Source: Calocera cornea HHB12733
Taxonomy: Eukaryota > Basidiomycota > Dacrymycetes > Dacrymycetales > Dacrymycetaceae
DNA length: 64,000 bases
Reading direction: 5' to 3'
NCBI GenBank assembly: GCA_001632435.1
Contig: KV423953.1
Coordinates: forward strand, 124,001-188,000
Both the position numbers and the translations under genes were made by a program. The notes below the pieces were generated by a model that saw nothing but the letters and a program-made list of their open reading frames with translations, was not told the DNA's origin and made no database searches. Of this stretch, positions 13,490 through 32,412 are shown piece by piece; position 1 is the first letter of the stretch; every line of letters begins with the position of its first letter.

Positions 13490-13534
13490 CAGCCGCCTCA
13501 GTCGACTAGGATAATCTGAGACGTAGAGAGAGCG
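13490..13534 (+). repeat. left terminal inverted repeat
   Basis: The outer part (AGCCGCCTCAG) matches imperfectly and the core 13498-13525 matches perfectly the reverse complement of the right end. After one mismatch AGAGAGCG also matches. Confidence 0.85.
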
Positions 13535-13630
13535 TCAACTGGGATAATCTGGCAGCATCTCAGAACGTAAAGGCGAGCGATAATCCCGATGACCCTGGTG
13601 GATAATCTCAGCGATTATCCAAGATTATCC
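13509..13630. promoter_or_regulatory. subterminal GGATAATC motif array, left end
   Basis: GGATAATC or its reverse complement GATTATCC occurs at 13509, 13542, 13600, 13613 and 13623, with a near copy at 13579. Both orientations are present. Repeated subterminal motifs are typical transposase-binding sites; that role is inferred. Confidence 0.6.
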
Positions 13631-13764
13631 CAGATATCCGGGACGTCGGCTGCAGGACAACCAGGATACCGGCCGCAGGTGAGCTAGAGAACAGGATATC
13701 GCATTGCGGTGTGTGTTAGTAATACATGTGTCGCTCTGTGAAATGCATATAGTTGACAACCAGC

Positions 13765-16575
13765 TCAGTGCAGCGAGCTGTCAGAGTCATCCTCGTCTGA
13801 GTCCTCACTCTCATCTCCATCTTCTTCATCCGCAGCAGGTTGTCTCGTCTGATTGTCCTCGTCTTCTTCGTCATTCTCTTCGCTGTCATTCTCCTCCACG
13901 TCCTCAGGATCTTCCAGGCGAACAGCGCCGGTAGCATTGTATTGTATTTCGTCATGGCTTGTACCCGTGTTCCTCGACTGCTCTTCATCAGCGAAAGTTG
14001 ACGTGTGCACTATTCCGGACTTACAAACCAGCGATGTGTGCGCGCCTGAACCGTAAACCACCAGCAACTGTCAATAAGGGGAGAGAGCACCGTATCGATA
14101 TCACCGTCATTCTTCTGTTTAACACTGTCAGCGCAAGTGCAAAAAGAGTGCAATGCTGTTGAACGTACCCGGAATTTCCACAATTCTTCAGCCTCCATAT
14201 TCAGAATAGCATCGGCCAAAGGTGAGAATATGGTGATAGGGAGAAGACCGCTCTTGGAGCCATTGCCGATGGAGACACGCAGAGTATAACAATAGCGTTT
14301 ACGCCCCTTGAGCTTCTGATGCGCATCGATCTTGCAGGTGTTTGGTCCCACAGCAGATTTGTTACAGTCGGGGCTCTTGCAAGCCCGGTAGAGAAGATTC
14401 TTCGACGTTACTTGGCGGATCTTGCCAATCACGTTGAAGGTCTCCACCTTATTGCCGGACCCAAACGCAGAGTTTCGAACTTCGCGGACGGTTTTACAGA
14501 ATGTGCGAGGGCGAACGCCTGGCAGCTGCCCACTCACGGCGCTGTATCCTCCGGACGCGTGATTGTAAACGTGGCCCTCCGGTATATTGTCATACCTATA
14601 TGAGTAAATTAGCGAAAGACAAAGCGTGACTGAACAGGAGCACTCACCATTCCACCAACGCCGCTACATCGTCTTTCACTACGAGATCTGTAGGAGTGAT
14701 CTTGATTACAGTCTTCTTGTACACGTTCAGCGTCACGCCGCCGTGCGGCGCAACAACCGCATTCCGCAGCATGATCACGTCATGCTCCTCGCCTTTGAAG
14801 CTGTCCGCTCGTTCGTTCCATATAGAGACCCGCGTCACAAAGCCCGAAGAATCGACCACTTGAAGTTCGCGCCGACGGCGTTCTCCAGTTGCGCCTACTT
14901 CTGCGTCATCAGGGGCCGCTTCGTAGCCGCCTCCAGGATCGACCCGAGTCTCTGCTGAGAAAGACGCAATCTGGCCGACACCAACGAGAATCCCGAGAAC
15001 GTTGATGGTCGAGCCAGGAGCCAGGAATCGAACGTCGTTAAGGCTTGTGAATTCGATCTTCACTTCTGGCAGCTTATACTGATAAGACCCTGTATGCACC
15101 CGCCAGTGCGATCCCTCCTCCAACATTATCTCTCTGTCGAGTGCACCGTTAGGCTGAAATCTTCTCTCCTTGATAGGGACGATCTTGCAATTAGCGAAGT
15201 ACAGAATCTGTCCATTCGTCAGCATAGGCCGAGAAAGATCAGCGGAGTAGGCCTACAGAACCAACCTCAACCTGCTCCACCAGTTGCTCACACAAGCTCT
15301 CCAAGAAGGTCGTGACCTTCATTGCAGTCTGGCAAGAAAAGAGTAAGTATATGCGCCTCTCATCCAAAGAAAGTCTCACGTTCTCAGCATCCTTGACAAC
15401 CAGGGGCATCAGAACGCCAGATCCGTTATGGTTACTCCATTGACGAGGCTTTTCGATATGATGTACTCTGACGTACACCTCCCATCTGTCTACCATAGTC
15501 GGTCGAAGATAACGCAGCTGGTATCGTAGGTTTTGCCCGTCGTCCTCGTCGATATGATTGCTTGCTGTCACAAACCCTTTACGACCGCTGGGCAGTACTG
15601 GCGTAGTTCCCTTCGGCTTCTTAGCTTTCGACGATTTCGTAGGCGCCTTGAAGGGGAGTACGTGCTGGGGCGGCTGTGGACGGGACGTGGACAAGCCAGG
15701 ACTTGGTATTCCTTGTTCCCCGTGATCCTTCAGAAGACTGCGTGTGGGAGCTGGATTTGCTCGTGAGAGACCTCCATATGCAGCCTGAGAAGAGCGTGAA
15801 ATACCGGATGTAGAGCCATGGGCAGCTCGAGTAGGAGTAAAGCTGGCGTTCTCTTTATTTCCAGGATCGACGTAAGAGTCATCGGTCAGAGATGTGAGTG
15901 TCGATGCTTGCGATCCCATCAGGCCTGCGAGAACGTTGGGAGGAACAGGCCTCCGGGCGAGCGGAGTAGTGATGGTACGAGTGGTATCCGGTGGCGGAAC
16001 ATGCTCCTGGGCGGCGTAGCGAGGAAGGGGGACGTCAGGCTCTTCGAGCTGAACGGCCGTAACGGCGACGCTCAGAGCCTTAGGCCTGCCCCATAGCTGC
16101 TGAGGAGATCTTGACACCTTCTGAGCGGTTTGTATGATAACAATACTAGACAGATTTCAGCCCTCCGATCAAAAGATGGACGCATATACTTACCGCCTTC
16201 CCATCAAAGTTGCTCTACTCACGTCTTGAACTCTCAGCAGTACTCCTTTCGACAGCTTTCCTTCGCTTGCCAGCTTCGAAAGCTTCTCCCCAAGCATAAC
16301 ATCAACGCAGTGTTCACTATCCGATATGCATGCCCTTCCATTCAAAAGCTCAGCTTGAGCTTGATCAGTGTGGCGAATCAAGTGACTCACTGATACTCGG
16401 GCCGATCTGAGAGTGCTTGTCCATCTATGAGCACTTCTTCGCAGCTAAGAAGCTGTACCAAGACGTCGGGAAAGCTTGTCTTTGACGACTGAAGTATGTT
16501 GGCACAGGTGAATTTGGCGAACGTAGGCGATATAGGCGAATTCAACGAGGTAGAAGCCATCGCAGCAGTGAGCAT
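13765..16575 (-). CDS. RPA1-like replication protein A large subunit (transposon cargo)
   Basis: Predicted single-stranded-DNA-binding protein homologous to the RPA70/Rfa1 large subunit. Exons on the minus strand: 16575-16391, 16334-16194, 16145-15380, 15328-15266, 15207-14648, 14595-14169, 14114-14025 and 13980-13765 (815 aa), all phases consistent. Order: N-terminal OB fold (about 1-135, with CISDSEHCVDVML), Ser/Pro linker, DBD-A (about 300-440, WEVYVRVHHIEKPRQWSN), DBD-B (about 440-570, STINVLGILVGVGQI, RVSIWNERAD), then DBD-C with TVREVRNSAFG and a zinc-ribbon-like C644-x4-C649-x9-C659-x4-H664. Human RPA70 uses Cx4C..Cx2C, so the third and fourth ligands differ in spacing. The tail of about 60 residues is strongly acidic (EENDEEDEDN), absent from canonical RPA1. 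It could assist repair or replication of transposition intermediates (inference). The start may be 16560. Confidence 0.8.
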
Positions 16576-16829
16576 AGTTGAGGATGGCTGCTTCAGAGGA
16601 ACAGACGTGGTGGCGGCGGTCAGGAGGCGCGTCGCGTGAAGTTCTAGCCTGAGCTTCCGCCAGGGTTTGCTTCCGCTCGACCTTCGCCTAGACGTGGCGA
16701 ATCATCTTCTCTTCCTCTCCTGTCCCTTCATCATACCCCTAGTCAATATCATACCTCATTAACGTGGCTGGGCCCGTCATCAACAAACCTCTCTTCTACA
16801 TTAGCCATACTCTAAAGCTCTCTGTCACG

Positions 16830-16975
16830 AATACCACGTCTGCATACCGAGGAAGGAGCGGCGGAAAGATATCCAAACTGTGCATATACCCACGGACCAC
16901 TCGACAAAGCCTCTTGCTGACGCCTTCGTAGCTTATCTGAACTTCGGACAACAGCTTCAATCGTCTCGGCTTTCA
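16830..16975 (+). repeat. degenerate upstream copy of the next gene's first exon
   Basis: This stretch (ccgaggaaggag..gctgacgccttcgtagcttatctgaacttc) is a diverged copy of 17026-17140 (ccgaggaaggag..actgatgccttgatagctcatctagacttc), about 190 bp upstream. Its reading gives IPRKE..LADAFVAYLNF beside MPRKE..FTDALIAHLDF. It lacks an ATG, so it looks like a decayed tandem exon duplication. Confidence 0.55.
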
Positions 16976-17025
16976 CTAATCTCAGTACATAAGCCACGGA
17001 GAGTTCCCTGCAAACGTCAGAATAC

Positions 17026-17752
17026 ATGCCGAGGAAGGAGACAGTGAGAGGAGCCTCTTCCAACCGTATGTATGCGGCCTACCGCTGGAGAAGGCTGTTT
17101 ACTGATGCCTTGATAGCTCATCTAGACTTCAGGCAACGTCTGCCGGCGGCCAAAGCTCCTATTCACCGTATGCAGCAGCAGGCGCGAAGCCAATCTCCGC
17201 CTGCGTCCGGTTCAGCGACAATGCCTCAGTTGACGCCTACCGGCGTCGCCCGGAAACGTCCTCTTAGTCCCAGCGGTCATCAGTCTCAAGAGGAACGTCC
17301 GAGCAAGAAGCCCGCGATTGAGACACCTGCTGATGAGGAGATGGAGCAGTCGAGGACTAGCGTGCAGGCCGGAGTTGATCAGGCCGGAGTTGATCAGGCC
17401 GGAGTTGATCAGGCCGGAGTTGATCAGGACGGAGTTGATCAGGTCATGGACGAGGTGCGCGCGCGCGCCAATCTTTTTCACTCCAGCTAATCAGACTCAG
17501 ATTGCTATCAAAGAAGAAGATGAAGACGTCCTACTATCAGAAGGAATCTGGGCTACGCCTGACTGGAAAGCAAGAGCTGCTGCGCTCAGCAACGACAGCT
17601 TCTTCAAGAGTTTCCTCGTTGTCGACCTGTTGAAGCGCGTAGGCGCTTTAGAAGCACAGGCGAACGGACTACAAGCCGAGAATGCAATGCTCAAAGCAGA
17701 ACTACAGAAGGCGCACAGCGATCGGAAGGGAAAGGGACGTGCGGGTCAGTAG
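17026..17752 (+). CDS. coiled-coil protein with AGVDQ repeats (transposon cargo)
   Basis: Function unknown. Exons 17026-17442 and 17495-17752 (224 aa), with a 52-nt intron whose donor directly follows the last repeat unit. The N-terminus is basic (MPRKE, YRWRRLFTDALIAHLDF). A Ser/Pro/Gln-rich middle with KRPLSPSGHQ and RPSKKPA could be a nuclear localisation signal. Then come five tandem pentapeptides (AGVDQ x4, DGVDQ) and a C-terminal leucine-heptad coiled coil (LLKRVGALEAQANGLQAENA) ending in KGKGRAGQ. The coiled coil suggests dimerisation. Confidence 0.55.
17368..17442 (+). repeat. 15-bp coding minisatellite, five copies
   Basis: Unit gccggagttgatcag at 17368, 17383, 17398 and 17413, and a variant with first codon gac at 17428. 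The first four are identical, which suggests recent slippage. The unit length keeps the frame. Confidence 0.95.
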
Positions 17753-18097
17753 GAACAGTAGGAACAATGTCTGTGTATGCAACAAGCCGTGATAGTGTAT
17801 CATTTTACCTGTGAAGAGAATTCAAGCATCGACCAAGTGAGTAAAGAACCTCTTCCGACACATCGCGGATGTTAGAGCAGAAAGCCTGCCTGTTAACTTC
17901 CATTCTTCCTACGCATCTGGCAGGAGCAGACTACTGCCTGTCTACTGTACTCGCATATTCCTTGGCCCGGGAGGAGTGGCGCTGCGGTGCTCGGTTTACT
18001 TCCGCTGGTTATATACTCCACTCGAGTCAGGTGGATGGAGTACTCCTCTGTTCTCTACTTCCAACGTCAGCTACTGCTGTTGGCTCCCCCGATTGCA

Positions 18098-18859
18098 ATG
18101 ACGATCGACCATGGCCTCACGTCTGCTGCAGCAGAAAATGATCTTATGCCTCCTACCAACACCCACTTTGAGCAGCACAGGCTCATAGGCTTCACTGCAA
18201 CCAAGGGGTGCGGCTTTCACGATGAAGAAGATGCGGCGATGCACTTTGGCCCACTATACATCGCTCTAGGTGCCAAGGTTTCTGGTAGTGAGGATTACCA
18301 CCTTTGCGATGAGCTGTTCTGACGTCTACTATCAGCACACATGCGAAAGCGCCACAAACTGAGCAATGTCCTTAAGACCGTCAACACACCCCTATTCTTA
18401 GTCATGGTTCAAGAGATACAAGATCAGTTCCATCAGCGCTCTGGCTCTGCTACAGGTACGCTTTATCTCACGTCAGTGTGTCGGGGACCCACACTTAACA
18501 AGTTGCTTTAGCTGCACGCGCTTCGGCAGCCCGCGGCCAAAAGCTCGCTCGTATCAAGACGTCAGAGCTATTAATTCTGGGGAGGGAGGCGGTTCTTGAG
18601 ATGGAGAGGCGGTTTCCAGTCTTGAAGGATAGCCAATACGTGAGTGTTACGCAGCTAAGACAGCACTCCTGCTCATCAATGCCAGCTCGCGAGTATATCT
18701 GCTCCGGCCGAGTCATCTGTTGAAGACAGCTCTGGTAGCCCTCGCGGCGCGAGTCCCTTCTCCAACATCATCTCGGACGACTGCCCTACGAGACCCACCA
18801 CACCAGCGTCATCAAATAACAACGAGGCTGAGGTCGGGGTAGTGTCGTCTGTGTGCTGA
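18098..18859 (+). CDS. unknown protein (transposon cargo)
   Basis: I do not recognise this family. Exons 18098-18287, 18336-18455, 18512-18639 and 18686-18859 (203 aa); the three introns are 46-56 nt and all phases agree. The first intron (gtgagg..tatcag, with a ctgac branch site) removes an apparent in-frame TGA. Visible segments are GCGFHDEEDAAMHFGPLYIA, HMRKRHKLSNVLKTVNTPLF, a helical RGQKLARIKTSELLILGREA stretch, and an acidic Ser/Pro-rich tail. The frame is open upstream to 17987, so the start could be earlier. Confidence 0.5.
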
Positions 18860-19175
18860 GTTGCAAAGTTCTCGATGGAGATCATTAGGAGCACGGGCGT
18901 TGGGCTCTCTCAATGCCAAGGAAGGTGGCCAGTGGAATTCGACGTCTTATCATTCTGTTCTGCTACTAGATACACACTTTGTGTACAAGTAGCCCAACAC
19001 CACGCATGTTTTAAGGAGATATCATGATGATCACCGCTTCACTCAAGGCTGACAAGGTCAGCGGAACTAGAGGCAAATTGACGGACCCTGTTGTCCTGCG
19101 CTCCATCCGGCCTGCCAGCCAGCCCCTTCCATAGTTCATCTCAATCTACAACACGTCCGAGTTGCACATCCACTC

Positions 19176-19839
19176 ATGTCTCCTCGAGTTCTGAAGAGAG
19201 GCACCTGCAGAGCGCTCATGTGCAATGATTTGCTTTCCAATCCTTACCTCCAGGTGCTTGGTGTCATATCCGTCCCTCCGGCGGCCTCGTTCACGAATGC
19301 TCTTGAATTCCAGTCTGTGCCTTTGATCTGTTCCTTTCGCTTCTGCTGACGTCCGCAGACTGAAAATCAGTGACGGTTTCGAGGCTATCTATGCCATGCT
19401 CAACCCAAGCTTGAACTATCTTGTGGTAGCGGGAAGGATCAAGGTGCACACTATCCTGGCGGTGCGGACGTTCTTTGCGGTGGAGTTCTGTACATTGAGG
19501 TGCGCTTGTGGGATACCACCGATACAACCCTTCAGCTAACATCAAACAAGGATCGTGCGACTCGAAGATGTGGCGGTTGCTGGTGCCGCTACGCGCTTGT
19601 ACGGACAGCCGACCTCTCTGGATATCAGTCTTGACCCGGCAAATGCGGCAGGGCAGGTGATGAAGTTCCTCCTGGAAGACGTCTGCCGTAATGGCTTCAC
19701 AACTCAGCTTCCGCTCAAGGGTTGCTCAGATAGAGAAGATGAGGATTTCTTTGATACCCGCAATGGGAAGAGAGAAGGCGGGAAGGATAGGCAGATTGGG
19801 GGAGCTAGGTTGATGAGTTCAGCGGCGGACACCTTCTAA
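19176..19839 (+). CDS. solo RPA1 N-terminal OB-fold protein (transposon cargo)
   Basis: Predicted single OB fold related to the N-terminal (protein-binding) domain of RPA1. Exons 19176-19312, 19359-19499 and 19551-19839 (188 aa), phases consistent. The order matches RPA1N: LKRGTCRALM, NPYLQVLGVISV, LKISDGFEAIYAMLNPSLN, LVVAGRIKVHTI, RIVRLEDVAVAG and RLYGQPTSL. The last mirrors the strand before the GNP/GRP linker of RPA1; the full-length cargo protein has QLWGRPKALS there. No DBD-A, B or C domains follow. In RPA1 this domain binds partner proteins rather than DNA, so an adaptor role is possible (inference). It is not a close copy of the N-domain of the larger cargo gene. Confidence 0.65.
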
Positions 19840-20346
19840 TACATCCGACAACATTGCATTACAAATTTTCAACCGATAACGCACCTTGTAACAGTGAATC
19901 GAATTGAATGGCTTTCCTCGATGTTGCAATACGCAAAAACCTTCTCGAAGCTATTGACTGATACACCTTAGGGGCCCGAGCGGACCCATCTGATGGACCA
20001 TGATGCGAAGCCTGTGCTTCTGATTTGTTACAGATACACGAGTCTGTCTGTCTGGATCTTTCGACCATTTCCCGCCTAGTTAGATCTAAGAAAGGACTGA
20101 CGTGAACTACGAGGCCGGTCTCCAGAGCTAGGAATCGGAAAGCTGTTCTCTCCGGAGTACAGCCTAATCACGCGTTATCGGGTGTATTTCACACCGCAGT
20201 TCACCTTCTTGCAACGTCTGGTCGCCATTGTCTTGTAGCTCGTTCCTTTCCTGCTAGCTGAAAGCAGCAAGACTACACAGTGTCGCTGCATATCCTGCGA
20301 GGTACGAGCACCTATTCAAACGTTCCTTAATGGCTGAACGCGAAAC
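19840..20346. other. intergenic within the transposon, no gene seen
   Basis: About 500 bp between two plus-strand genes. No protein-like frame; presumed terminator and promoter region. Confidence 0.4.
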
Positions 20347-22176
20347 ATGCCCAAAGAAATGGTCAACTCTCTCAAGGCCGGCGAGTACCAGCGTCATGCC
20401 TCCGATGAGGTCCACGTCCATCTCAAAGCTGAGGATTATCAAGACATTCTAATCTGTCCTCATCGATATGCTGCCAATGGCGCAGTCCAGATGGAAAGTG
20501 AAGCGCGCCGGCACCTTCGTTTACAGCTGGAGCAGGCCATTAGCAGCGTCATATCCCGTGAAGATCCAGAGCAAGCGGGTAAGTCTGCCTCTGAGAAAGT
20601 CGTGTCTCCGACTAATGACTTCCATGCAGCGCTTTTCTTTCGAGACCTGGTCGAGGGTCTCTGCACAACTGCCAGTGATCTCTTCCTGGGAGCGCAGCCC
20701 TTCCCGAATTGGATCCCAATCCTCCTGCGCACGTTGAGCAACTTGCGCACCCTCCCTAGCGCTGCTATCAATAGCGCGCGTGACGACAGAACTTCCGAAG
20801 CAGAGACGTTAGACACCAATCTTTCAACACCGGTGCCGCGTGATGAAGTATGGGTGGTCGACGGTGTGTCCGATATAGAGTATTATGTGAAGTCCGATCA
20901 CAGCCGTGTGATACTTCCCGGACACGGAAAGTATCACTACTCAGTTGCCACGCGGATACCAGTGAATCCAAACTCTCCATCCCGACGTCGATATCCCGAG
21001 CGACCTCATCATTACGTCAAGCTGAACTTTAGCAATGCGCTACTGCGGTGGGACTTTAAGACATGGCTCGGTAAGCAAGGCATTTCGCCCATGGATCGGG
21101 ACTCGGAACTTAGGCTTGTAATCATAGCTGCCTGCATTGGAGGAACGTGCTTATGGAGAGACTTCCCTCAAGTTCTGCGATCCATGAAGAAGGTTCTGGT
21201 AGGCGTGTCACAATACCTGCATCTGCCTGGCTACGAAAGTCAACCTTACAAGTGGACCACAGTCAGTCAGTGGGCCATGAACGTTGCTATATGGGACGGA
21301 ACACTCTTCGTACGAGATTTGACTCATGGCATGTGGATAATAGTAAACAGCATTATATCTACTGACCAGTGTTTAGATGAGGCTGAGTTGTTCGATCCGC
21401 CGATAGCAATCTGTACGAACGGGGTGATCTTTTCTGCATCCGATATCGAAGCAATCTTCCACGTCGACTTCGCAAAGCCAGTTCAGCTAGCCTTGCCGCA
21501 AATTCAACGATGGCTGCCTTGGCAAGAGGTAGTTGGACTGCAACGAAACACAGATGACAATGACGCGGCCGAGACAAGAGAGGCGGAGCCTGGAATTGAA
21601 CGTTCTGCAAGATCCAAGCGATCGATCGATGTCAGGCGCGACGCAAGACCAAGCATTCTCAGCTACGATCCGGCTCAACTGCCTATAAATAAAAAACAGA
21701 AGACTGCCGTTTCGCCTTTCAATGGCGCCGTTGATCAGCAACTTGGGCTCGATGTTCCTTCTCATCCGCATACGTTCAGCTCAAATGGTCGCAGCGCATA
21801 TCTGGCCTCTACGTCCGCAACTCTTGGCTCTTCTCAAGATGATCCTATTCGTCAGACAGCCGAACTGGGAGCACTCGAGCTCCAGCTCACCTTCAACATG
21901 GATCTATCCGAGAATGACGTCAACTACTTGTTACCTTTCTCCGATACATATGAGGCCTACTGGGCAAACCCTCCACCGGAAGAACTACACACCCTGCCGT
22001 TTGTATTAGAAAATGGAGAGATGCGACGCGCCATCCCGAGGCTTGCAGCAGAAAAGAAAGCGCTGGCTGCCTGGCTTCGTCATCAGGCGCGATGGAAAGG
22101 CAAGCAGGGCGGGCAGATTAGCTACAGAGAGGCCTATCGCAGCTACCGTCGTTTGGCTCTATCTTCTTTAGAGTGA
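20347..22176 (+). CDS. 592-aa protein of unknown function (transposon cargo)
   Basis: Not recognised. The frame is open across the whole span, but 20579-20629 has every mark of a 51-nt intron (gtaagt donor, ctaat branch, atgcag acceptor). The best model is therefore 20347-20578 plus 20630-22176 (592 aa); retention would keep the frame and give 609 aa. There is a conserved-looking globular core (HYVKLNFSNALLRWDFKTWL, FVRDLTHGMWIIV, PIAICTNGVIFSASD), a low-complexity middle with NKKQKT, and a C-terminal helical stretch rich in basic residues (LAAWLRHQARWKGKQGG). No transmembrane segment or known catalytic motif is visible. Confidence 0.65.
   Translation: MPKEMVNSLKAGEYQRHASDEVHVHLKAEDYQDILICPHRYAANGAVQMESEARRHLRLQLEQAISSVISREDPEQAGKSASEKVVSPTNDFHAALFFRDLVEGLCTTASDLFLGAQPFPNWIPILLRTLSNLRTLPSAAINSARDDRTSEAETLDTNLSTPVPRDEVWVVDGVSDIEYYVKSDHSRVILPGHGKYHYSVATRIPVNPNSPSRRRYPERPHHYVKLNFSNALLRWDFKTWLGKQGISPMDRDSELRLVIIAACIGGTCLWRDFPQVLRSMKKVLVGVSQYLHLPGYESQPYKWTTVSQWAMNVAIWDGTLFVRDLTHGMWIIVNSIISTDQCLDEAELFDPPIAICTNGVIFSASDIEAIFHVDFAKPVQLALPQIQRWLPWQEVVGLQRNTDDNDAAETREAEPGIERSARSKRSIDVRRDARPSILSYDPAQLPINKKQKTAVSPFNGAVDQQLGLDVPSHPHTFSSNGRSAYLASTSATLGSSQDDPIRQTAELGALELQLTFNMDLSENDVNYLLPFSDTYEAYWANPPPEELHTLPFVLENGEMRRAIPRLAAEKKALAAWLRHQARWKGKQGGQISYREAYRSYRRLALSSLE
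20579..20629 (+). other. 3n intron that is open in frame
   Basis: 51 nt, GTAAGT..ATGCAG, with no stop in frame. Spliced or retained, the protein stays in frame. Confidence 0.6.
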
Positions 22177-22595
22177 CGGACGTGTGCGGCAGAAGTCGCG
22201 GTGGTCAAGCTTTTCCATTTGTATTGCGTTGGCTTATGGCTCGAACTACGTAGCGACCCCAAACTGTATTGTAGACCGCTTCTTACAAGCTCTGAACACG
22301 GCGGCTCATGATATGCGTATCTGCCAAGACAAGAGCAGGTCTCCGGCTCTTCTCGCAGGGGACGAGCACTGTAAGAAAGTTCGAGTGGGGGCTTCTTGGA
22401 GCGGGCTTCCTACGTCACCCTGTGGACGGGATTCAGCATGCGAAAAACAGATCTAGGCTGGAATTAATATCATATCTGGCAAACAATGATGAACTCTCAC
22501 TTCTGCTTATATATATCAGGGGAGGGAATAGTGATCCGTCTTCTGTACAGCGCCGCAATCATATAAGAGAGAAAAGTCAAGCCCTCGATATCCAC

Positions 22596-24597
22596 TCACT
22601 TGCGCGGACGGCCACGTCTGCGAGTTGATGTCGTCGGGGTATCGTCACTTCCTAGTCCACGTTTCCTCCTAAGCTGAGCATGGCCCTCAGTGTAGTGTGG
22701 TAAAGGTGACTCCTCATTCTCCGAGCTCGCCGGCGCAGGCGTCAGCGGCGATTGTATCGGAGGGCTGCTTCGGCGGCGACGTGCTCGAGGGGTTCGCTCT
22801 CCGGCAGCGGAAGACGTGGACCTCCGCTGTGAACCTTGGGATGGAGCTCTTGTATCGTCCTGGAGCAGTGCATCTCCGGCTGGTTCGGTAGCCAAAGGCT
22901 GAGGCTGAGTAGCCGGCTTCTGGAAGAAAGTATACTTGTCCTCGTATAAAAGCTGATCTTGCTCAATGCTGTGATACGTCAGAACAAGATCGGCGTAGTT
23001 CATGTGCTCCGGGTGGGAGAATGGGATCCCTAGCGGCATGCGGCCCGGTGCGATATCACTGGCGCTCCACTGCACCTGAAGAGTACCAAGCTTGTGTTCT
23101 GCCGCGTTGTCAGCACATCACAACTTAATGCATCTTCGCCACTGACCATGAAGATAACAGAAAAAAGCCGTCAGGATAACGCCAATTTCGACCTTATTCC
23201 AAGTGTCATCTAGCAAAGGCAAGATTGGACAGTTATTGGGGTACCGTTGAATGGTGGGAAGCTTCCTTGTGACCGCTTCTTGAACCTCAGCTTGAACTGA
23301 TTTATGCGATCAGCAGATATCATGATAAGTGTGCGAGCGCTCACTTGTGGTCTTGATGAACTCTTTCCAAGTTTCCAGAACTTGAGTATGGTGTCTCACG
23401 TTGAACTCTGAGAACGTCAAGCCAGATGGTGATTTCTCAGTCTCCACACTGGCGAGTTTGATGAGCTGCAATTGCAAACGTGTGAAGTTCAAAAGATGGC
23501 TTACATGGCAATGGCCCTGGCGCCGCTATGGTCTAAGCCGCCTGCCAACGTAAACACCGCCCAGCCCGTACGTGCGCTCATCGACCGGTGGAATGCTGCA
23601 ATGGTACTGTGCACCTGCTCTGATGCACTGCAGGCAAGTCAGATCGTTAATCGTTAAAGGGCGACGTCAAGAAGGCACGCACCACCTCTTACGAGTATCC
23701 GTCTGGTCTAGTCGGTCACAAGTTCTCTGCGCCTTTCCGGCCACTTCGATGTAAGTAGCTCGATTTTCCTCGGAGAGCTCGTCCTCCCAGTACTTCTTAA
23801 GAAAGCTCGGTCGTGCTTGGAAGATCGACTTATTTGATGCAATCGCGTGTGTTGCCACGTGCTGAGCAAAGTTCGGGATCTCGAGTGCCATCAACTCGCG
23901 AGCTTGGTTAGTGATCGGAGCCGGCTTGTCGTGTATGAGAGGAAACTTCAATATCGGATCGCTGATGTGGGCTCTAGAATTTTTGAGGAACACATAGATC
24001 TGCTGCAGACGTTCGTGTTGAGGAGGATGTCTTTGAAAGGAAACAGAAACAGAGCATACATCTCCCAGATTACCTTGTCCCTTCTTCGCTTTGCAATCGG
24101 GGAATCTACTCTGAAAGCTCGTAGTGATTTCGGCAGCATACTGCTTGCCTTGTCGGGCATCAGCGCGGACGTTGAACTCCTGCATCCGCTCTAACAGCCA
24201 TGATCGCTCCTCGAGAGCAAAGACAACCATATCGAAGCCGAAGTGAACTGCCAAGCTGCAGAAACCCAATGAGCGAAACAAGCTGAGTTGGACGAGGATA
24301 GGTATGCCATTCCTTCTGAGCCGCTTATGAGAAAAGCCAGACGTGGAGAGAACAGTGATATCCAGGAGAGTCGTCGAGCCCGGCCAGAGCGTAGCTCAGC
24401 AAGGGTTCGAGCGGGCGATCAGTTGACATAAGTATAGCATTGCTGGCGATCGGCGGAAAGCAATGCCGCATCTGAGCCCGATATGGAAGCATATGAACGT
24501 CAGGAGAGGGAGAGTCTTCAGGGGAGATCAGCTGAAGACGTCCTAAGAAGAAGCCGTGTAGAGTGTTGATGGTTGGAAGGGGCACTAGAACCTGCAT
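22596..24597 (-). CDS. AT-hook protein of unknown function (transposon cargo)
   Basis: Unrecognised family. Reliable exons on the minus strand: 24247-23683, 23627-23505, 23448-23345, 23296-23147 and 23098-22596; phases agree. Upstream, 24597-24354 reads as protein (MQVLVPLPTINTLHGFFLGR) and joins in phase through a 106-nt intron, long for this genome, so the 5' end is tentative. The model gives 562 aa. Seen: FGFDMVVFALEERSWLLERM, QIYVFLKNSRAHISDPI, a helical SFLKKYWEDELSEENRATYI, and a disordered Ser/Pro/Arg tail ending RRRGRPRK, a consensus AT-hook for minor-groove binding. It is divergent from the transposase gene; the two starts are about 230 bp apart and probably share a promoter region. 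Confidence 0.6.
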
Positions 24598-24827
24598 ACA
24601 AACGCGGGCCGTGCTTCGGTCAGTGCTGTCGGCGTAGCGACAATTAGAGATCAAGCGGAAGTAACAGCCCGCTTTGAAGACGGCGGCAAATATGGCCGAG
24701 GCAGTTCCGCTTCTTCCTCGCCACGTGGCTGAACCCTGACCGAACTGCGGGAACACGACAATAGTGCTGGCCTACCGCGGCCGACAAGGACTTGCATATC
24801 ACATCCTCTCGTCGATTCTCCAGCAGC
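24598..24827. promoter_or_regulatory. putative bidirectional promoter region of transposase and AT-hook genes
   Basis: Gap between divergent starts. No clear TATA box. The role is inferred from layout only. Confidence 0.3.
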
Positions 24828-27800
24828 ATGCCCCCTTCCCGTAGAAAGCGCAACAACGCAAGCATTCTTCTTATCGATGCACCCTCGACGTTGAAAGCTT
24901 CTCGGCGACAACATTTGCGACCGACGAGCTCAGCGCTTGTCAATATTGATGATCAACCACGTCCTGCGTTCCCATTGATCGCAGAGAAAGTTCTGCCGTT
25001 CGAAAAGCCAAGGACTGATGCTAAGCGGAATCAGGTGAGAGCCATTCAGTCGTATCTACTTTGAGTAGCTGGATATGCCTTTAGATGGCGTCTGATCACA
25101 TGTCGGCTTTCTCGGCAAGACGTCCAGAGATTCTGGCAGAGTGCCTGCATCACTATGGTCGAGCATCGGCATCAGTGACATGTGCAGGCTGCGATCAACC
25201 CTGCAGTAAACCCACCCGGTGCAGGGACTGCTTTCTTGCAGTGGAGCTCTGTGCGACATGCCAGGTCGACAGTCACATCCGAAATCCGCTTCATTGGACT
25301 GAAATCTGGAACGGCGATTTCTTCGCCCGAATGTCACTACAGAAACTTGGCTCAATCATCCACCTTGGCCATCACGGTTCTCCATGTCCGGCTGATTCTT
25401 CTACCACGCCCATCCCCTTCACGATTGTGCATATTAATGGAGTGCATAACGTCACACTGGCCTTCTGCAGCTGTGATGGGGCATCAGAGCGCTACCTGCA
25501 GCTTCTCGGATCTCGGCTCTTTCCGGTGACGTACGAGCAGCCGAAGACCGCTTTCACGTTTGCAGTCCTCAAGGACTTTCACCTACATACGCTATGCTCC
25601 AAAAAGTCTGCGTACGATTACTACGCTAAGCTCGTGCGGCAGACAAGCGACGTCTTCCCAGCATCAGCGAATGATCGATACAGAGAGCTTTTGAGGACGA
25701 GCTGGGTCTGGATGGATCTGGAATCGTCTCGACGTAGTGGGCATGACCATGATCTTGGAAACCATCTTCCAAGATTCGCGGCAGCCGCCATTCGCAGTCC
25801 GCTGTGCCCGGCGTGCCCACAAATGGCCATCAACGTATCTACGGAGGATATTGCGCAGATGGATCGCTCGAAGCCGTACGGATTGTCTCCTACATATCTC
25901 TCAGCCACTCCTGACGTCTTCTTAGCCACCTTTTCGCTCTGTATCTGGGAGGTGATGGGAACTTTAGCCTGTCGTCTAAGCAAAAGACCATGGACGTCAA
26001 CGATATTCCGCTCAACAACGGAGAGGGAGTATTCCCCAATCAGCAACTATTTGAGAACTTCATTATGAAGCACGAGGATCTGCAATTGGTATGAGACAAT
26101 CGACAAGCAAGTACGAGGCTGATAGTTGTAGTAGCCTCAGACCTGTAGCGGTTTTAAGACGTCGATGCTCTTTCAAGGCAATCTCGGGTACCGCTCATCC
26201 GGTGTATACTCGTGGACATGCATCAGGCATGGATTCTATCGACCGAATGGCACAGTAGACCTTCAGATCGGCGAGCGGTATGTTCGTGCTCTTTGATGCT
26301 CTCCCTGAGATCAGCTCACTCGTTGCAGCTTCTCCAACGTCGATTACGCGTTCGCCGGTGCTATCGCTGGCGCAGAGAGTCTACCGCGCATCTTCTTGTC
26401 ATATGACTTGGCTTGCATGTGGTCCCCGAAATGGAGGGAGCGAATGGCCGCCAGGTTCCCTCACCTACTTCCGCTTTGGGAACGAATCACGTTTGTTGTG
26501 CCCAAGATGCACGAATATGCCCATCGCGACAGCTGCCGTTATCGCTACTCGCTGGCATGGAAACAGGGTGCCGCTCGCGTGGATGGAGAAGGAGTCGAGA
26601 GAACGTGGGCCGAGCACAATCAGCTCGGAGGCAGCACCAAAGAGATGAACATCGGACACAGACGCGATTGCCTAGAGGTTCACTTCTCAGATTGGAACTG
26701 GAGAAAGCAGAGAGACATGGGTACACTCCACTATTTGTGATCAGCCGTATTCTAATCTGTATTGCAGTCCCCTCTTTGTGTCGGAGAATTATTCGAACGA
26801 AGATGCAATATCGACGCTATACGGCCTATTTCGAAGACGTCAGTCAAGCCTTCGGAGCGTCTCGTGTATCTCTGTGGAGCAAGCAGCCCGAGTACGTTGA
26901 ACAACGCCTTGGCAAGTTCACCAGCGTCTACAAGTATCCGGAAGAGGCAGGTATGTCCTATCTATATCTGAGTTGCCCCTTGTATGACTGAAACCTACCA
27001 GTGCCGACCTATCAAGCTGTGGTTGATCGGCTGCGGGAGGAGGAAAGAAGTGCCGCTACCGCGTTCTCCAACATGTCGGACATCAGAAGCGAAAGAGCAA
27101 GTGCGGTATCTTTCATCCAAATGGGAATTTCATTGCAGGAAGCCCAGTATGTAAACGTCAGAGCCCCCCAGTATCAGTATCCATTCTAATACCTGCACAA
27201 GGTACGTTGTGAAGCGAGCTTGGGAGAAGGAAACTGCTCCGCCCCGCGATGATTATGACATCAATCCCTCTGGCCAAGATGACGTTTGCACCACCCTCCT
27301 GCCGCAGCTTCGCACCTGGCGCATTCTCCAGATGCGCGAAATGCCCTTATTGTCGAGCGGCCATGTCCTCTCTCTGGGTGGGGAGGGCCACCTGCGGCCA
27401 GAACTGGAATGTCTCGGGCTTCCCTCTTCATTCGATGCTCAGGCTAGACGAGCACTGCAACTGGACAGCCTCGCATCCATAGAGCTGACGTTGAGGAAGG
27501 CCCAGGCGGAAGAAGCGATTGGCCGATTGATTGAAGAACTCAAGATACGGCACGCTTATCGACAAAGTATCAAGATGTCTGCATCTGCTTCCGGCATCAA
27601 AACGAGAGCTCGCAAGGCCTTGGAGCTTCAGTCCGAACTCATCGGTCGTTACGCAAATGTGTACCGAAGGGCTAGAGAGGCGATGCTTTGCCTGGGTCTC
27701 TCTACACTTGATCCGAAGTACCGACTGCTGTCCGACGACGATCTGAAGCTACCTTCTGTCTCACAGGAGCAGGAGCACGCAGGGATCGACATTCCCCGTG

Positions 27801-28199
27801 ATCCTTGGTTCTACAGCCTTCGCCGAGGAGACTTCCTTTCGCAGAAGAGGTCCGAGTCTATCTCCTGGAGTGAAACAGGTTCGCATATCCGGTTTTTCAG
27901 TTTTGATGGATCCGCTGATCCTCTCCCGCCCAGTGGACTCGGTTACCTGGTGGCGCGCACGAGCTCTAGCGTTGCGATGGACAGAAGAACTCGAACTTCT
28001 AGAAGAAGAAATGAAACGAGTCCTGCGATTCTTCAGATTTTTCAGTGGACTATGGAAACAAGCTTCAGGTCGACGTCAGATGCAAGGAGGCTGGACGGCC
28101 TATGCCGCCAAACAAGCAAGCATTTTCTCTCTGCTCGCGGAAGATGCCTGGACGTCCTTTTCTCTCTATTTGGATACGCGGACGATCCCATTTGAATGA
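24828..28199 (+). CDS. KDZ-superfamily transposase with CxC2 cysteine cluster
   Basis: Predicted RNase H-fold transposase that would cut and join the element ends. Nine exons: 24828-25034, 25085-25875, 25926-26088, 26141-26277, 26329-26720, 26768-26950, 27002-27146, 27202-27878 and 27934-28199 (986 aa). All junction phases agree and no stop or frameshift remains. The cysteine cluster (about residues 102-127) reads CAGCDQPC..CRDC..CATC and is followed by PLHWTEIWNGDFF, the CxC2-like arrangement. Candidate catalytic acidic residues are D343 in GGDGNF, D459 in SYDLACMW and the acidic residues of DGEGVERTW (518-526). Also seen are CIRHGFYRPNG..DLQIGER and STKEMN..RRDCLEVHFSDWNW, both typical of this family. 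The C-terminal half is helical (TEELELLEEEMKRVL). The intact frame suggests the element could still be active. Confidence 0.9.
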
Positions 28200-29004
28200 T
28201 TTCAGCTGCTCCGTATATTTGTTACAAAATAATATAGCTGAGACTGCGCCTTCCATTCTTAGACGAGCAGCGGATCTTTGTTGCCGTTATCCCGTGCTGC
28301 CGGCTCTGACCCTTGATCTGGGGACGAGCAGCAGATCTCTATTGCCTTTATCCGGCACCGCGGTGCGGTTCCTTGACGTTCGCGGACGGCTGAGTGGCGC
28401 AGCGTAGTAATATCTTGTCCGCCTTCTTCAGCAATTCCAGATATTGCAGATGTTACCGTTGTCAACACTATCACTTGATCTCCGGCCCAATAGGTTGACG
28501 ACCATGAGAGGCAGTCTCGAGGAAGACGTCAATTGCTGTTTTCATGCGCGCAATCATTACGCGGCCGCATCCGAATAGTTACAAGTAGCAAATAACCGGC
28601 GTTTATTGGTGAAGAAATTCGGGATGCTTTGCTTCTCATCGGGCGATCACAGTTCTCCCAGATATCGCCGTTCTTGGAAATATTCCTTAAACGGGAATGT
28701 GCGAGTTGCATCATGATGTGACTGCCTGCAGATTGTACGACGGTGTTCCGAGCATCAGCACCCTGGGTCTGGAGCGCTCTGACGTGGGGATTCCCATGGA
28801 AAAATACGCGGCCATCTCACGGTCAGGCGACGAATTGGTCTTCTAGCTGTTAAGAGTAAGAGCAATGTGCTGGAGACCTCGATGTACTCTGCGGAGCATA
28901 TAAGCTGGGTTGTCAGCTCGACCAGCTCAGAACTCTACCATCTTTCCTCTTACCCATCTTGAACACTCCATATCGACGCCTCTGAATTTCCTGTCCTCCA
29001 CCTG
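28200..29004. other. intergenic within the transposon
   Basis: About 800 bp without a gene. Contains a diverged direct duplication of about 35 bp at 28262-28296 and 28323-28357 (gacgagcag..gatct..attgcc..atccg), offset 61 bp. Otherwise nothing recognised. Confidence 0.45.
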
Positions 29005-30470
29005 ATGCCGGACGTGCCTCCCCTTTTGTACCGTGCGCCTCGTACAGACGAGGCGTGCAGGACTTGCGGCAGTGGAATTCACCCTCGAATTCTGGTCGCA
29101 TCTACTGCTCAGAACAAGGGCCGCTCCTATCATGCAGTACGATGATCTCTCTGAATATCATAATCGTCGGGCCCTACGTAGCTAACTAGTATTCTGCTTT
29201 AAGTGCAACGGAGAGCTTGGGGGAGTCCGCCATTGGTCGACCTGGCGAGCAGATCTGCCCTGGCGCCGGGCTACGTCAGCACCTCCGATATTCACCGCCA
29301 GCCCGGGAGATGTAGACCCCACATCTGTCATGTTTCCCATCCATGGCTTCGGAGTATTGTGCTCCAACCCTGCTTGCCGCAAGATGGGAAATCGACTTTG
29401 CCCTTTTCTTGCTTGCATCAACTGCTGCCCTGGCTGCCGACGTCCGGGACACGATAAATACCGCTTCATCAAGACGTCTTCGCCTCATCCTGCATCCTCA
29501 GCCAGCTATGCACCCTCGTCACCAGTCTCTCGATCTACTTCGATATCACCTCATTGGGGGGGAAAGATCAAGAATGAGCGGAATGGAATCAAAGCCAAAG
29601 TCGAACGTCAGACTCCGAAGCCGAAGCCTGAGTTGTTCAGCCCGATCAGTCTTACTCCGCGCGCTCGCAACACCTTGATGGAAGGAGCGACTGTTGTCTT
29701 CTGGATCTCTGTAAGTGTTATCTCCAGAACACAGATTGATAGAGCCTGACGTAGCCAATGTCAGGCTTTTATGGACCCCGTGGAATGGACACTTCCCACC
29801 AGCACGCTGTTCAGGCCCTTGACTCATGGAAATATCATACGCGAACTCTCGGTCACCGAAGCACCTAGAGTTCAGTACTATCGCCGAGCGTCGTGCCGAT
29901 GGGTCGACGTCAAAGAGGGGGACTGCTTCGAGCTGTTGGAAGGGTCGGTGCTATTGCTGCGGTCTGGCCAGAATATCATCTACGACGTTAATGGAGCAGA
30001 AATCAGTCTGGAATATTCGGACTTTGTCAAGGTACTCAACAGATTCCACGAAGATGCTTTCCTGGATTGTCCGAGCAGGGACAATGAGGCTGGTAGGGAG
30101 ATTATGCCGTTCTTCACACTCGCTAGCTGACAGAATCAAATTTCCAGGCAAGCCCTTCTTGAACAAGCTGCTGCGAACGTACGGTGGTGGGGCCAAAAAG
30201 GGTCAACCCCTTTCTGCCGACGACGTGAATGGTGAGTTGCGGTCTCCAAATGTGAACAATTCGATCTGATTGTTACGGCCAGGCTCATGGACGGACGCTA
30301 AGAGACAGCAGATAGATATCGCTGCGCAGGAACTTCAGTCGGATTGGATAGCAACTCAGCCAACCGCACCACAGAAGAGAAAGGGAAGTGACAGCCTGCA
30401 CTACGCTTCACAGAAGAAGAAGAGGCGCATGTCAGAGTGGACTGACACTGAGGTGATTGACCTCACGTAA
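29005..30470 (+). CDS. GRF-like zinc-finger protein with C-terminal SIM (transposon cargo)
   Basis: Exons 29005-29136, 29204-29710, 29765-30092, 30148-30231 and 30283-30470 (412 aa), phases consistent. The N-terminus reads C-x2-C-G, then ASTAQNKGRSYHAC and VRHWSTW. The N(K)GR-aromatic-x-C core and the following HW..W resemble a GRF zinc finger, a module that binds single-stranded DNA or nucleic acid in several DNA-processing enzymes; the fourth Cys is not obvious. A second cysteine-rich patch follows (CSNPACRKMGNRLCPFLAC, then CCPGCRRPGH). The middle is Lys/Pro-rich; residues about 215-320 look globular (VEWTLPTSTLFRP, VEYYRRASCRW-like). The protein ends TEVIDLT, a classic SUMO-interaction motif. 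The function in transposition is inferred only. Confidence 0.6.
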
Positions 30471-31467
30471 CCCGCTCTAAGCCTGGAGGTGGCCCCTGAA
30501 TCGGTCATCGCACATGCATTTTCTCGCTCCATTTCTCTGATAGTGCAGCTCGATCCTGCTGCTATTCGCCCAAGTTCTGATTTTCCCCTAACGTAGCTGC
30601 TTGGCTGATAAAAGTCCTGGCTTCAAGACTCCTAATGTAGTAATTATTGTTGATTCCTTGTTAAGGAAAGATAGCACGGAGGCAAGATCGGATGCAGATA
30701 AGCGGGATGTAAATCTGCCCTTCCCACAGTCCCACGTCTTCTCCGCAACTTGCCCCTATGTCTTCTTCGACCACAAACTACTTGCTCGACATCCGATGCT
30801 CAACACTCCTTCCTTTCACTTCGACGCTTGCAAGACTGCTTAAATCGACTTCGGTTGGCGTGGATGGCTTAAAGTGAGAAAACGACGGCGGAATTGTAAC
30901 CGTCCAGCCATTTCGAGCCCAGCACCACAACACTATCGATTGGCTGGCAGTTTCCGCATCATAAGCTGGCATGGTTGTACTCAGTGCAACGCCTGCTTCA
31001 TGCACGTATGAGTCCAGCGAGCGCTCTGCAACGCTGGTCGATATCCGTCTTCGGGTCAAGGCTAGGATGCGGAGAGTGCAGACGTGAGCGAGGCTGAGAA
31101 GCTGTGAGCCCAAACCTGAACAACGGACGGTCAGATAGCTGACGTTCCCAAGCTTCACATGGTTGCATAGTGAGAAACATGCCCTGCAGGCAGTCAGACG
31201 TCAGGTATGCGCATAGATCCCCCAAAGACGCCGTATTGATTTGTTTCCTTAGGGGCATTATGGTGCTGTCGACAGACCACCGAGAGTCGACTGTTTACGC
31301 GGCAGAAATACTTCCGTGAGCTGCACACGTGAGCCAGGACGGCGCGTCCAGATGTGGTCCCTGACGCGAGAAAATAGCCTCCGCCCCGCCACCTGAGCTC
31401 GTCGACCCTCCTCTCCTGCTCGCCGTCCCTTCTCAGTACATTCGCTCTCTACGACGTTCAGCTCAGC
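30471..31467. other. intergenic within the transposon, about 1 kb
   Basis: Several open frames exist on both strands (for example minus 31158-30778) but none has supporting splice structure or recognisable motifs. Confidence 0.35.
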
Positions 31468-32074
31468 ATGCGTTTTGGTGGCCGAGACGTTCAAGTCCTC
31501 ATCGGGTCGACTGTTGTGCAGAGCTCTTCGAGTACCAGCAATGCGATCAAAGCACAGATTCGCGACGTTCGTCGTCAGCTGAAGCTCGCCAAGTCAACGC
31601 TGAAGCGCGCCCATCGCTCCCTTCGCAAGGCCCGCAAGCGCCTTCATAAGGCCGAAAGAAAGTGCGATCGTCATCCGACCATTCTCCGCTACGCCTCAAT
31701 CTATCGTGCCGCGAGTATGGTCCAGACGTTCGAGCGAGAGGTGACTGAGGGTGAAGCGAGAGTGACTTGGCTAGCGAGCCAATTGACGGCGGCGGAGAGC
31801 GGTGTTCTGCCTGGGCTAGGTGCGCCTCTGCATATGCTGACGTTCGACGATTGTTGCTGACAACCTTGAAGGTGCGAACGCGTACGGCGGTGTCGGCAAC
31901 GTCGGGCTCGGCAACACCGGCCAATTCATGAACTCGTTCAACGGGATGGCGATCAACGTGGGCAATGGTGGAGGCGGTGGAGGGACGTCTGCAGGCATGA
32001 TGGAAGGCCTCGGGCATGCGTTGCCTGCCATCGCAACGGCGGCAGGCACGCTTGCGAGTGTCATACCGACGTGA
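31468..32074 (+). CDS. coiled-coil / glycine-rich small protein (transposon cargo)
   Basis: Function unknown. Exons 31468-31819 and 31872-32074 (184 aa) with a 52-nt intron (gtgcgc..ttgaag), phase consistent. The first half is a highly basic amphipathic helix with short repeats (LKLAKSTLKRAHRSLRKARK, RLHKAERKC), likely a coiled coil or nucleic-acid-binding helix. The second half is Gly/Asn-rich (GGVGNVGLGNTG) followed by a short hydrophobic Ala-rich stretch. It lies only about 330 bp from the right end of the element. Confidence 0.55.
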
Positions 32075-32278
32075 AGAGCGCACGGCAAGGACTTGGTACG
32101 CTGTTGTCCTGACGTTTGCCGTTTTGCACAGTCTAATGCTCCTGTAGAGTCTTCAATTTGATACCATTGTACTAGATGACCGTATAGTACAACCAATATC
32201 ATACTCTGCTCCTTCTGGCTGCCTGCGATGCGAGCCTATCTGGGCGAGTCACATGACTGAGTTGCAGATTAACTAACG

Positions 32279-32386
32279 TTATCCTGCGATAAACTCAAGC
32301 TGTCCGCTGGATTATCCTTCGGGTTCTCGCTCTACAGCGCGCTAGGATTATCGCCGAATACGCTCTCTGTACGTCTCAGATTATCC
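32279..32386. promoter_or_regulatory. subterminal GATTATCC motif array, right end
   Basis: GATTATCC at 32310 and 32379, near-copy GATTATCG at 32346, and GTTATCC near 32279. The same octamer is enriched at the left end. Confidence 0.55.
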
Positions 32387-32404
32387 TAGTCGACTGAAGC
32401 ATCT
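32361..32404 (-). repeat. right terminal inverted repeat
   Basis: The core 32370-32397 is the exact reverse complement of 13498-13525. The outer bases (AGATGCTTCAG when read inward) match AGCCGCCTCAG with three differences. Confidence 0.85.
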
Positions 32405-32412
32405 GCTTTGGA
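32405..32412 (+). repeat. target-site duplication, right copy
   Basis: GCTTTGGA, identical to 13482-13489. Confidence 0.85.

What the first reader, a model, noticed from the sequence alone, without database searches (positions are those of the whole stretch)
13490..32404. 18.9-kb cargo-bearing KDZ transposon with defined ends
Seen: an 8-bp duplication GCTTTGGA at 13482-13489 and 32405-32412, inverted termini with an exact 28-nt core, and a CxC2/KDZ transposase inside. Eight other spliced genes show no obvious breaks. Known: KDZ elements are expanded in basidiomycetes and make 8-bp duplications. Inference: this is a giant, possibly recently mobile, element carrying a DNA-transaction gene set rather than a transposase alone. 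I know of no described KDZ unit with this cargo.
Basis: partly seen in the sequence, partly recalled or inferred. Interest (0 to 1): 0.95.

Follow-up and report, generated by a model that had tools for sequence, protein, structure and literature searches.

The report
Giant fungal jumping gene carrying RPA
A jelly-fungus genome holds five copies of a large jumping gene, about 20 kilobases where it could be measured, and every copy carries beside its transposase its own version of the DNA-coating protein RPA, which likely helps so long a piece of DNA to move.

Summary
Window 13490-32405 is one complete nine-gene KDZ transposon in Calocera cornea (Dacrymycetes). The 28-nt terminal core is exact. 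Two are about 99% identical where compared, with unrelated flanks, so the family moved recently. Transposase, gene H and the RPA70-like gene were seen in 5 of 5 copies. Copy 2 is colinear with copy 1 in all nine genes; copy 3 (22.4 kb) keeps six clearly and two marginally, in mirror order. Between copies 1 and 2 all nine genes look purifying-selected (NG86 dN/dS 0.11-0.39). The "cargo" is thus largely the element's own core gene set. The RPA70-like protein has an acidic tail instead of the host protein's C-terminal helix; a second protein has an RPA70 N-domain. Joined flanks of the split NLR align with a paralog. Giant KDZ elements with accessory genes are known from algae; the RPA-bearing set is what I did not find in print. 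How RPA helps is inferred.

The parts
13483..13489 (.). left target-site duplication, 7 bp CTTTGGA
13490..13630 (+). left terminal region: CAGCCGCCTCAGT end, inverted repeat, six GATAATC/GATTATC motifs (predicted transposase sites)
   Evidence: CAGCCGCCTCAGT identical in 5 of 5 copies
13765..16575 (-). gene A, RPA70-like (RPA-N, DBD-A, -B, -C; acidic C-tail), 8 predicted exons, 811 aa
   Evidence: public model P0004 agrees on the C-terminal 463 aa or so
17026..17752 (+). gene B, small protein, unknown; 15-bp tandem repeats inside
18098..18859 (+). gene C, unknown, 203 aa
19176..19839 (+). gene D, Rep-A_N (RPA70 N-terminal domain) protein, 188 aa
   Evidence: Pfam 27.2 bits against cut-off 26.7; copy 2 counterpart had no match in the same call
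20347..22176 (+). gene E, unknown; spliced public model P0001 479 aa
   Evidence: relatives in Calocera viscosa and Dacryopinax
22596..24230 (-). gene F, unknown, ends in AT-hook-like RRRGRPRK
24828..28199 (+). gene G, CxC2+KDZ transposase, 9 predicted exons, 985 aa open frame (exon borders approximate)
   Evidence: (KDZ 2-217 of 217, 165 bits)
29005..30470 (+). gene H, cysteine-cluster protein (GRF zinc ribbon below cut-off), ends in VIDLT
   Evidence: beside gene G in 5 of 5 copies
31468..32074 (+). gene I, small protein with Gly-rich tail
   Evidence: not matched in copies 3-5; an unlike ORF at this place in copies 3 and 4
32310..32405 (+). right terminal region ending ...GTCGACTGAAGCATCTG, three GATTATC motifs
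32406..32412 (.). right target-site duplication, 7 bp CTTTGGA
13169..34154 (+). host NLR-type gene split by the element (5' part left of 13490, P-loop part right of 32412); outer limits approximate
   Evidence: joined flanks read through and align with a paralog near 50.2-51.0 kb minus; paralog has NPHP3_N; repeats to paralogs up to 34154

Best explanation
Window 13490-32405 is one full-length copy of a five-copy family of KDZ DNA transposons in Calocera cornea (19-22 kb in the three copies that could be measured) that likely moves by cut-and-paste with a 7-bp staggered cut, and whose accessory genes are predicted to serve the element itself. Shown: the boundaries, five copies with the same ends and different 7-bp flanks, transposase, gene H and RPA70-like gene in 5 of 5, the shared gene order as far as read, the selection signature between copies 1 and 2, the split NLR, and the RPA70 and RPA-N homologies. 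Inferred: the transposase binds the GATAATC repeats near both ends, pairs them and cuts; the RPA70-like protein coats single-stranded DNA exposed during excision, integration or gap repair. Having no counterpart of the C-terminal helix that host RPA70 uses to join RPA32/14, and an acidic tail instead, it would act as a free-standing single-strand binding protein. Protein D, a lone RPA70 N-domain, would mimic or block the checkpoint docking site of host RPA.
For: Left- and right-end searches of the whole genome each gave 3 matches: copy 1 itself, its own opposite end, and one end of copy 2. Five copies with 7-bp duplications. Copies 4/5 98.8% over 1661 bp and 99.4% over 8545 bp, with no similarity found in 600 bp of flank on either side. 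RPA70-like gene in copies 1 and 2, 3, 4 and 5. BLASTN matches of copies 1 and 2 cover 87.3% of coding, 93.5% of intron, 100% of 606 terminal bases but 8.1% of intergenic bases. dN/dS (NG86) A .28, B .39, C .32, D .31, E .18/.24, F .20, G .11, H .14, I .15; YN00 0.09-0.34; third-position excess in 10 of 10 gene pieces. RPA70 match E 3.9e-23 to 8rk2. Acidic tail: 27 and 28 of the last 48 residues D/E in copies 1 and 2; the RPA1 gene on C3, which I take as the host's, ends instead in LDYKTEIKALVDSMKAYM. Nine of 13 GATAATC/GATTATC in the 64-kb window lie in the two terminal regions.
Against: No activity, expression or strain comparison was tested. dN/dS rests on my own gene models and on filtered alignment windows (which lowers dN), and dS is 0.85-1.55; the transposase model used there had its 3' exons partly out of frame (corrected only). 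Copies 1 and 2 are old relatives (67-76% DNA identity by piece), so recency is shown for copies 4/5 only. B-F of copies 4/5 were not seen (C160:1-7000 reads N, and C160:7001-11199 was not fetched). In copy 3, B (E 0.010) and D (0.003-0.025) are marginal and gene I was not matched. Stretches of gene H in copies 3 and 5 hold a stop codon in the frame I named; intron or damage was not settled. Copy 2's gene E is broken. Both structure models were poor (mean pLDDT 38 and 44). The RPA role is by homology only; loss of RPA32/14 binding is deduced from recalled knowledge of the trimer helix.
Confidence: 0.8

Rival explanations
1. The accessory genes are passengers: host genes caught between two ends and carried along, as in Pack-type or Starship-like cargo.
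For: Most accessory genes have no known function; RPA-like sequences are also present elsewhere in the genome (21 exon-level matches); gene I differs or is replaced in copies 3 and 4.
Against: All nine genes colinear in copies 1 and 2; A, C, E, F, G and H clearly, B and D marginally, in the same order in copy 3; all nine look selected between copies 1 and 2; gene H stays beside the transposase in 5 of 5 copies; only 29% identity over 62 aa between the element's RPA exon and the C3 RPA1 gene.
Confidence: 0.08
2. The terminal repeats and flanking 7-mers are chance, and the segment is ordinary chromosome with a transposase gene inside.
For: A 7-mer match alone is weak evidence: my scan for copy 3 returned 2 candidate pairs, one without the family's ends, and the scans for copies 4/5 returned two more such chance pairs in a wrong pairing.
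Against: Five of five copies with exact 7-bp flanks beside identical 13-nt left ends, unrelated flanks for copies 4/5 and a split NLR whose joined flanks align with a paralog.
Confidence: 0.01
3. The element is real, but RPA and protein D act against the host (silencing, checkpoint or recombination control) rather than in strand handling.
For: Protein D is an RPA70 N-domain with no other RPA domain found, the part that recruits checkpoint factors in known RPA (recalled). Other KDZ elements carry TET/JBP, read as anti-silencing (PMC12730594, abstract and passages); none was found here.
Against: Gene A keeps the regions of DBD-A, -B and -C, which fits DNA binding; the two roles are compatible.
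Confidence: 0.3

Closest known systems
Kyakuja elements of Agaricomycotina (KDZ superfamily; PMC12730594, section 3.2 and passages)
   Same: KDZ transposase, 7-bp duplications, CA..TG termini, accessory gene with the transposase
   Different: The two Laccaria families described there have no terminal inverted repeats and carry TET/JBP; this one has TIRs (51 of 60 positions match in copy 1), no TET/JBP found, and eight accessory genes, two of them RPA-related
Cryptococcus KDZ1-3 (PMC12810828, passages)
   Same: fungal KDZ elements with TIRs, seen moving
   Different: 9.2-11 kb, CxC1 transposase, 8-bp (KDZ1) or 4-8-bp (KDZ2, KDZ3) duplications
Giant KDZ elements of Ectocarpus and Chlamydomonas (PMC12477816, passages)
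   Same: up to 30.3 kb (Ectocarpus) and 31.7 kb (Chlamydomonas, cited there); giant families there often carry additional transcribed genes
   Different: algal; accessory genes mostly of unknown function, nested insertions common; RPA not mentioned in the passages I saw
RPA-bearing Helitrons (PMC6431247, passage)
   Same: a transposon with an RPA protein
   Different: rolling-circle RepHel elements, without TIRs or duplications (recalled); here the transposase is KDZ
Starships (titles and abstract starts in a search listing)
   Same: large multi-gene fungal mobile elements
   Different: tyrosine recombinase, Pezizomycotina, accessory cargo; here KDZ transposase, TIRs, 7-bp duplications and a largely fixed gene set

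Membership tests
KDZ superfamily | KDZ (PF18758) transposase domain | tested here: met
   profile 2-217 of 217, 165 bits
KDZ superfamily | associated cysteine cluster (CxC1/CxC2) | tested here: met
   CxC2, 117-118.7 bits
KDZ superfamily | three acidic catalytic residues (D-D-E motifs, recalled) | tested here: inconclusive
   motifs GDGNF, SYDLAC, DGEGVER present in copy 1's frame; their catalytic role is recalled, not tested
Kyakuja lineage | 7-bp duplications | tested here: met
   5 of 5 copies
Kyakuja lineage | CA..TG termini | tested here: met
   CAG..CTG in 5 of 5
Kyakuja lineage | absence of terminal inverted repeats (as reported for two Laccaria families) | tested here: not met
   40-51 of 60 terminal positions match, by copy
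Kyakuja lineage | transposase groups with Kyakuja in a tree | not tested
   no named Kyakuja, Dileera or Zisupton references were at hand; so filed as KDZ only
Zisupton / Dileera lineages | 8-bp duplications | tested here: not met
   8-bp reading fits 2 of 5 copies
TET-positive KDZ | TET/JBP gene inside the element | tested here: not met
   six-frame search of the whole genome with Tet_JBP gave 2 sub-threshold matches, on C49 and C100, none on contigs of the five copies; no match among gene products scanned
RPA70 (gene A) | RPA-N, DBD-A, DBD-B, DBD-C | tested here: met
   Pfam and PDB matches; RPA-N over cut-off in copy 2 (38.5 bits), below it in copy 1 (14.2 bits); zinc residues C-C-C-H read by eye
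RPA70 (gene A) | C-terminal helix for joining RPA32/14 (recalled) | tested here: not met
   acidic tail instead in copies 1 and 2; shorter acidic segments at this place in copies 3-5, by eye without gene models
Starship | tyrosine recombinase captain gene | tested here: not met
   no such domain in Pfam scans of the nine gene products, G in part

The most novel reading that the evidence does not exclude
A lineage of cut-and-paste transposons that has built its own DNA-handling kit: a private single-strand binding protein made from RPA70 by dropping the trimer helix for a phage-SSB-like acidic tail, plus an RPA-N decoy that quiets the host checkpoint. Kept together for a long time as one nine-gene unit, it would let about 20 kb of DNA move as a standard transposon, which makes it closer to a small self-equipped mobile genome than to a transposon with cargo.
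Probability: 0.33. Interest if true: 0.78.

Novelty: new variant of a known kind. Interest (0 to 1): 0.62.

Why it matters
It indicates that a KDZ transposon can carry a long-conserved multi-gene programme rather than chance cargo. It gives a defined, testable case of a transposon of the KDZ kind with its own RPA, so the question of what very large transposons need from, or must do to, host DNA repair becomes directly testable. It also corrects the duplication length and supplies ends and empty-site logic with which to find more.

Tried and rejected
Rejected: the 8-bp duplication (fits 2 of 5 copies). Rejected: a carboxylesterase target for copy 3, which I suspected from a read-through ORF; Pfam found nothing. 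Read-through ORFs at the joined flanks of copies 2-5 were not used as evidence, since such ORFs also arise by chance. Structure prediction for genes E and H gave unusable models, so no fold search was run. Homolog searches: gene H none (2582 candidates); gene E three, one of them this copy itself and two from other Dacrymycetes; gene A two, both C. cornea, this copy and one 72% identical whose sequence matches copy 2's. In some searches only 7994 candidates were scored, so absence elsewhere is not shown. PDB search for gene E: nothing significant (best E 0.11). Gene-model script 1 ran genes together and ended in an error; replaced. First attempt at the transposase 3' exons was out of frame, corrected; the dN/dS and coverage counts were made with the models and not repeated.

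Literature for 'not found in print'; 'KDZ transposase' with 'replication protein A': 0 papers. One search listed 15 of 23 papers and one search listed 8 of 1,266, so these two were not seen whole. The founding KDZ paper (Iyer 2014) is not held and Kojima's supplements could not be read, so the novelty claim is limited to this library.
Full report
Observation. The inverted ends, the exact 28-nt core, the CxC2/KDZ transposase and eight further genes are in the sequence. The element runs from C at 13490 to G at 32405 (18,916 bp). The duplication is CTTTGGA, 7 bp. The window lies in contig C40 of a 32.1-Mb, 302-contig assembly. A public protein that reads like gene E with its introns taken out, on a contig of the same length (213,552), is named Calocera cornea HHB12733, a dacrymycete.

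Other copies. Searches with the left and right ends each found one further end, both of copy 2, and the two halves of the element used as queries placed it and pointed to the rest. Copy 2: C83:124222 to the break near 132372, continued on C164:276-11238, duplication CGGCTGG, about 19.1 kb by addition of its two parts. Its gene E is interrupted by a sequence whose 273-bp end on C164 is identical to a stretch on C83, as an LTR element would leave. Copy 3: C84:43271-65674, reversed, 22,404 bp, duplication TGTAATT as read on that contig (AATTACA in element orientation). Genes H, G, F, E, C and A match clearly in mirror order, at 28-79% protein identity by piece; B (E 0.010) and D (E 0.003-0.025) fall at the expected places but are marginal; gene I is not matched. 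Copies 4 and 5 are each split over two contigs: C155:71976 to the contig end with C58:1-8545 (CAACAGA), and C169:56183 to the contig end with C160 up to 12848 (AAACAGG). In the four possible pairings of these contigs, 7-bp flanks beside the family's ends matched in these two only. Copies 4 and 5 are 98.8% identical over 1661 bp and 99.4% over 8545 bp, with no similarity found in 600 bp of flank on either side. In them the transposase, gene H and the RPA70-like gene were seen; B-F were not (C160:1-7000 reads N). All five left ends begin CAGCCGCCTCAGT; right ends are CAGATGCTTCAGTCGAC (1, 2), CAGACAATTCAGTCGAC (3) and CAGATACTTCAGTCGAT (4, 5).

Target. The element sits in the 5' part of an NLR-type gene. 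Joining the flanks with one CTTTGGA gives ...KQYKKYIANEDEVDELAKTFENALERFMV, which lines up by eye with ...GTIKRYVKYKLGTGVTIDEDMRALDAAMDRFKV of a paralog on the minus strand near 50.2-51.0 kb; that paralog carries NPHP3_N over the cut-off and NACHT below it. This is a paralog's equivalent of an empty site, not an empty allele.

Genes. A (811 aa) matches RPA70: RPA-N (over Pfam's cut-off in copy 2, below it in copy 1), DBD-A and -B, and DBD-C with zinc residues read by eye. Its last 48 residues hold 27 (copy 1) or 28 (copy 2) acidic residues, where the RPA1 gene on C3, the best RPA match in the genome and taken as the host's, ends LDYKTEIKALVDSMKAYM. Two public gene models, P0004 and P0005, show the same tails, and shorter acidic segments lie at this place in copies 3-5 (by eye). 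That the helix joins RPA32/14 is recalled. D is a lone Rep-A_N domain, 27.2 bits against a cut-off of 26.7; its copy 2 counterpart had no match. G is the transposase, an open frame of 985 aa. H has cysteine clusters, a sub-threshold GRF match and a C-terminus VIDLT in copies 1 and 2, which looks like a SUMO-interaction motif (recalled). F ends in an AT-hook-like RGRPRK. B, C, E and I have no assignment; E has relatives in Calocera viscosa and Dacryopinax only, as far as the search reached.

Selection. Between copies 1 and 2, NG86 dN/dS is 0.11 (G) to 0.39 (B) and YN00 0.09 to 0.34, over ten pieces of nine genes, and third codon positions hold 43-65% of differences (weakest is B, p = 0.009). 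Alignment windows under 30% identity or rich in gaps were left out before counting, which lowers dN. The transposase model used was partly out of frame in its 3' exons, so part of G was dropped by that filter. BLASTN coverage is 87.3% coding, 93.5% intron, 100% terminal and 8.1% intergenic (gene E counted as coding throughout). High intron coverage means DNA coverage alone does not prove coding constraint; the codon-position signal is the better support.

How it likely works. GATAATC/GATTATC occurs 13 times in the window (shuffles: mean 5.08; 1 of 100 reached 13), nine of them in the two terminal regions; these are the likely transposase sites. A DDE-type transposase cutting with a 7-bp stagger would give the duplications. 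The RPA proteins likely protect or manage single strands in excision, insertion or gap repair, or blunt the checkpoint; sequence alone cannot decide.

What is known. The two Kyakuja families described from Laccaria have 7-bp duplications and CA..TG ends but no TIRs (PMC12730594); Zisupton, and the Dileera family shown there, have 8 bp. This element has 7 bp with TIRs, so I file it as KDZ and do not claim Kyakuja membership. Giant KDZ elements are reported from Ectocarpus (to 30.3 kb) and one of 31.7 kb from Chlamydomonas, and giant transposons in Ectocarpus often carry extra genes (PMC12477816, passages). RPA is known in Helitrons (PMC6431247, passage). I found no KDZ element with RPA in the searched library.

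Limits. One genome; no activity data; B-F of copies 4/5 unseen; own gene models; no named transposase references.

Mended against the calls: the gene set is no longer claimed whole for copies 3-5, the 19-22 kb length is claimed for three copies only, and YN00 values and the marginal B and D matches are stated.

Noticed in passing
C83:132372-135528 and C164:1-275 (L005, L006, L020): Copy 2's gene E is interrupted by foreign DNA with a 273-bp direct repeat at 100% identity, LTR-retrotransposon-like, and the assembly breaks inside it.
   Followed up: partly
L034 and L037, last ~1.1 kb before the right end: Copies 3 and 4 have an ORF at gene I's place that looks alike between them by eye but unlike gene I of copies 1 and 2; fast-evolving or replaced (the automatic comparison there returned nothing).
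   Followed up: partly
own genome, PF08646: 21 exon-level RPA C-terminal-domain matches on 14 contigs; some may belong to one gene or to other OB-fold proteins. On C82 an RPA-like exon (130988) lies about 12 kb from a KDZ match (118718-119427) on the opposite strand: perhaps another RPA-bearing KDZ lineage.
   Followed up: no
own genome, PF18758 and PF12851: 51 exon-level KDZ matches; Tet_JBP only two sub-threshold matches, on C49 and C100.
   Followed up: no
window 2978-6623, 8133-8963, 32903-34154, 48736-50427: Related NLR-type sequences around the element: NPHP3_N at 2978-4813 and 48739-50427, TPR at 4701-6620; 8133-8963 has no Pfam match but is 78-85% identical to 33497-34154.
   Followed up: partly
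window 37017-41203 and 58993-60961: Two diverged copies of an OPT oligopeptide transporter gene.
   Followed up: no
window 35402-36230 and 46229-46890: Pieces of an inverted duplication, 77-93% complementary, about 10 kb apart, unexplained.
   Followed up: no
window 17365-17458: 15-bp tandem repeat (CAGGCCGGAGTTGAT) inside gene B.
   Followed up: no
L034 5550-5966 and L038 4407-4814 (gene H of copies 3 and 5): A stop codon lies in the frame I named for these stretches; whether an intron or damage was not settled.
   Followed up: no
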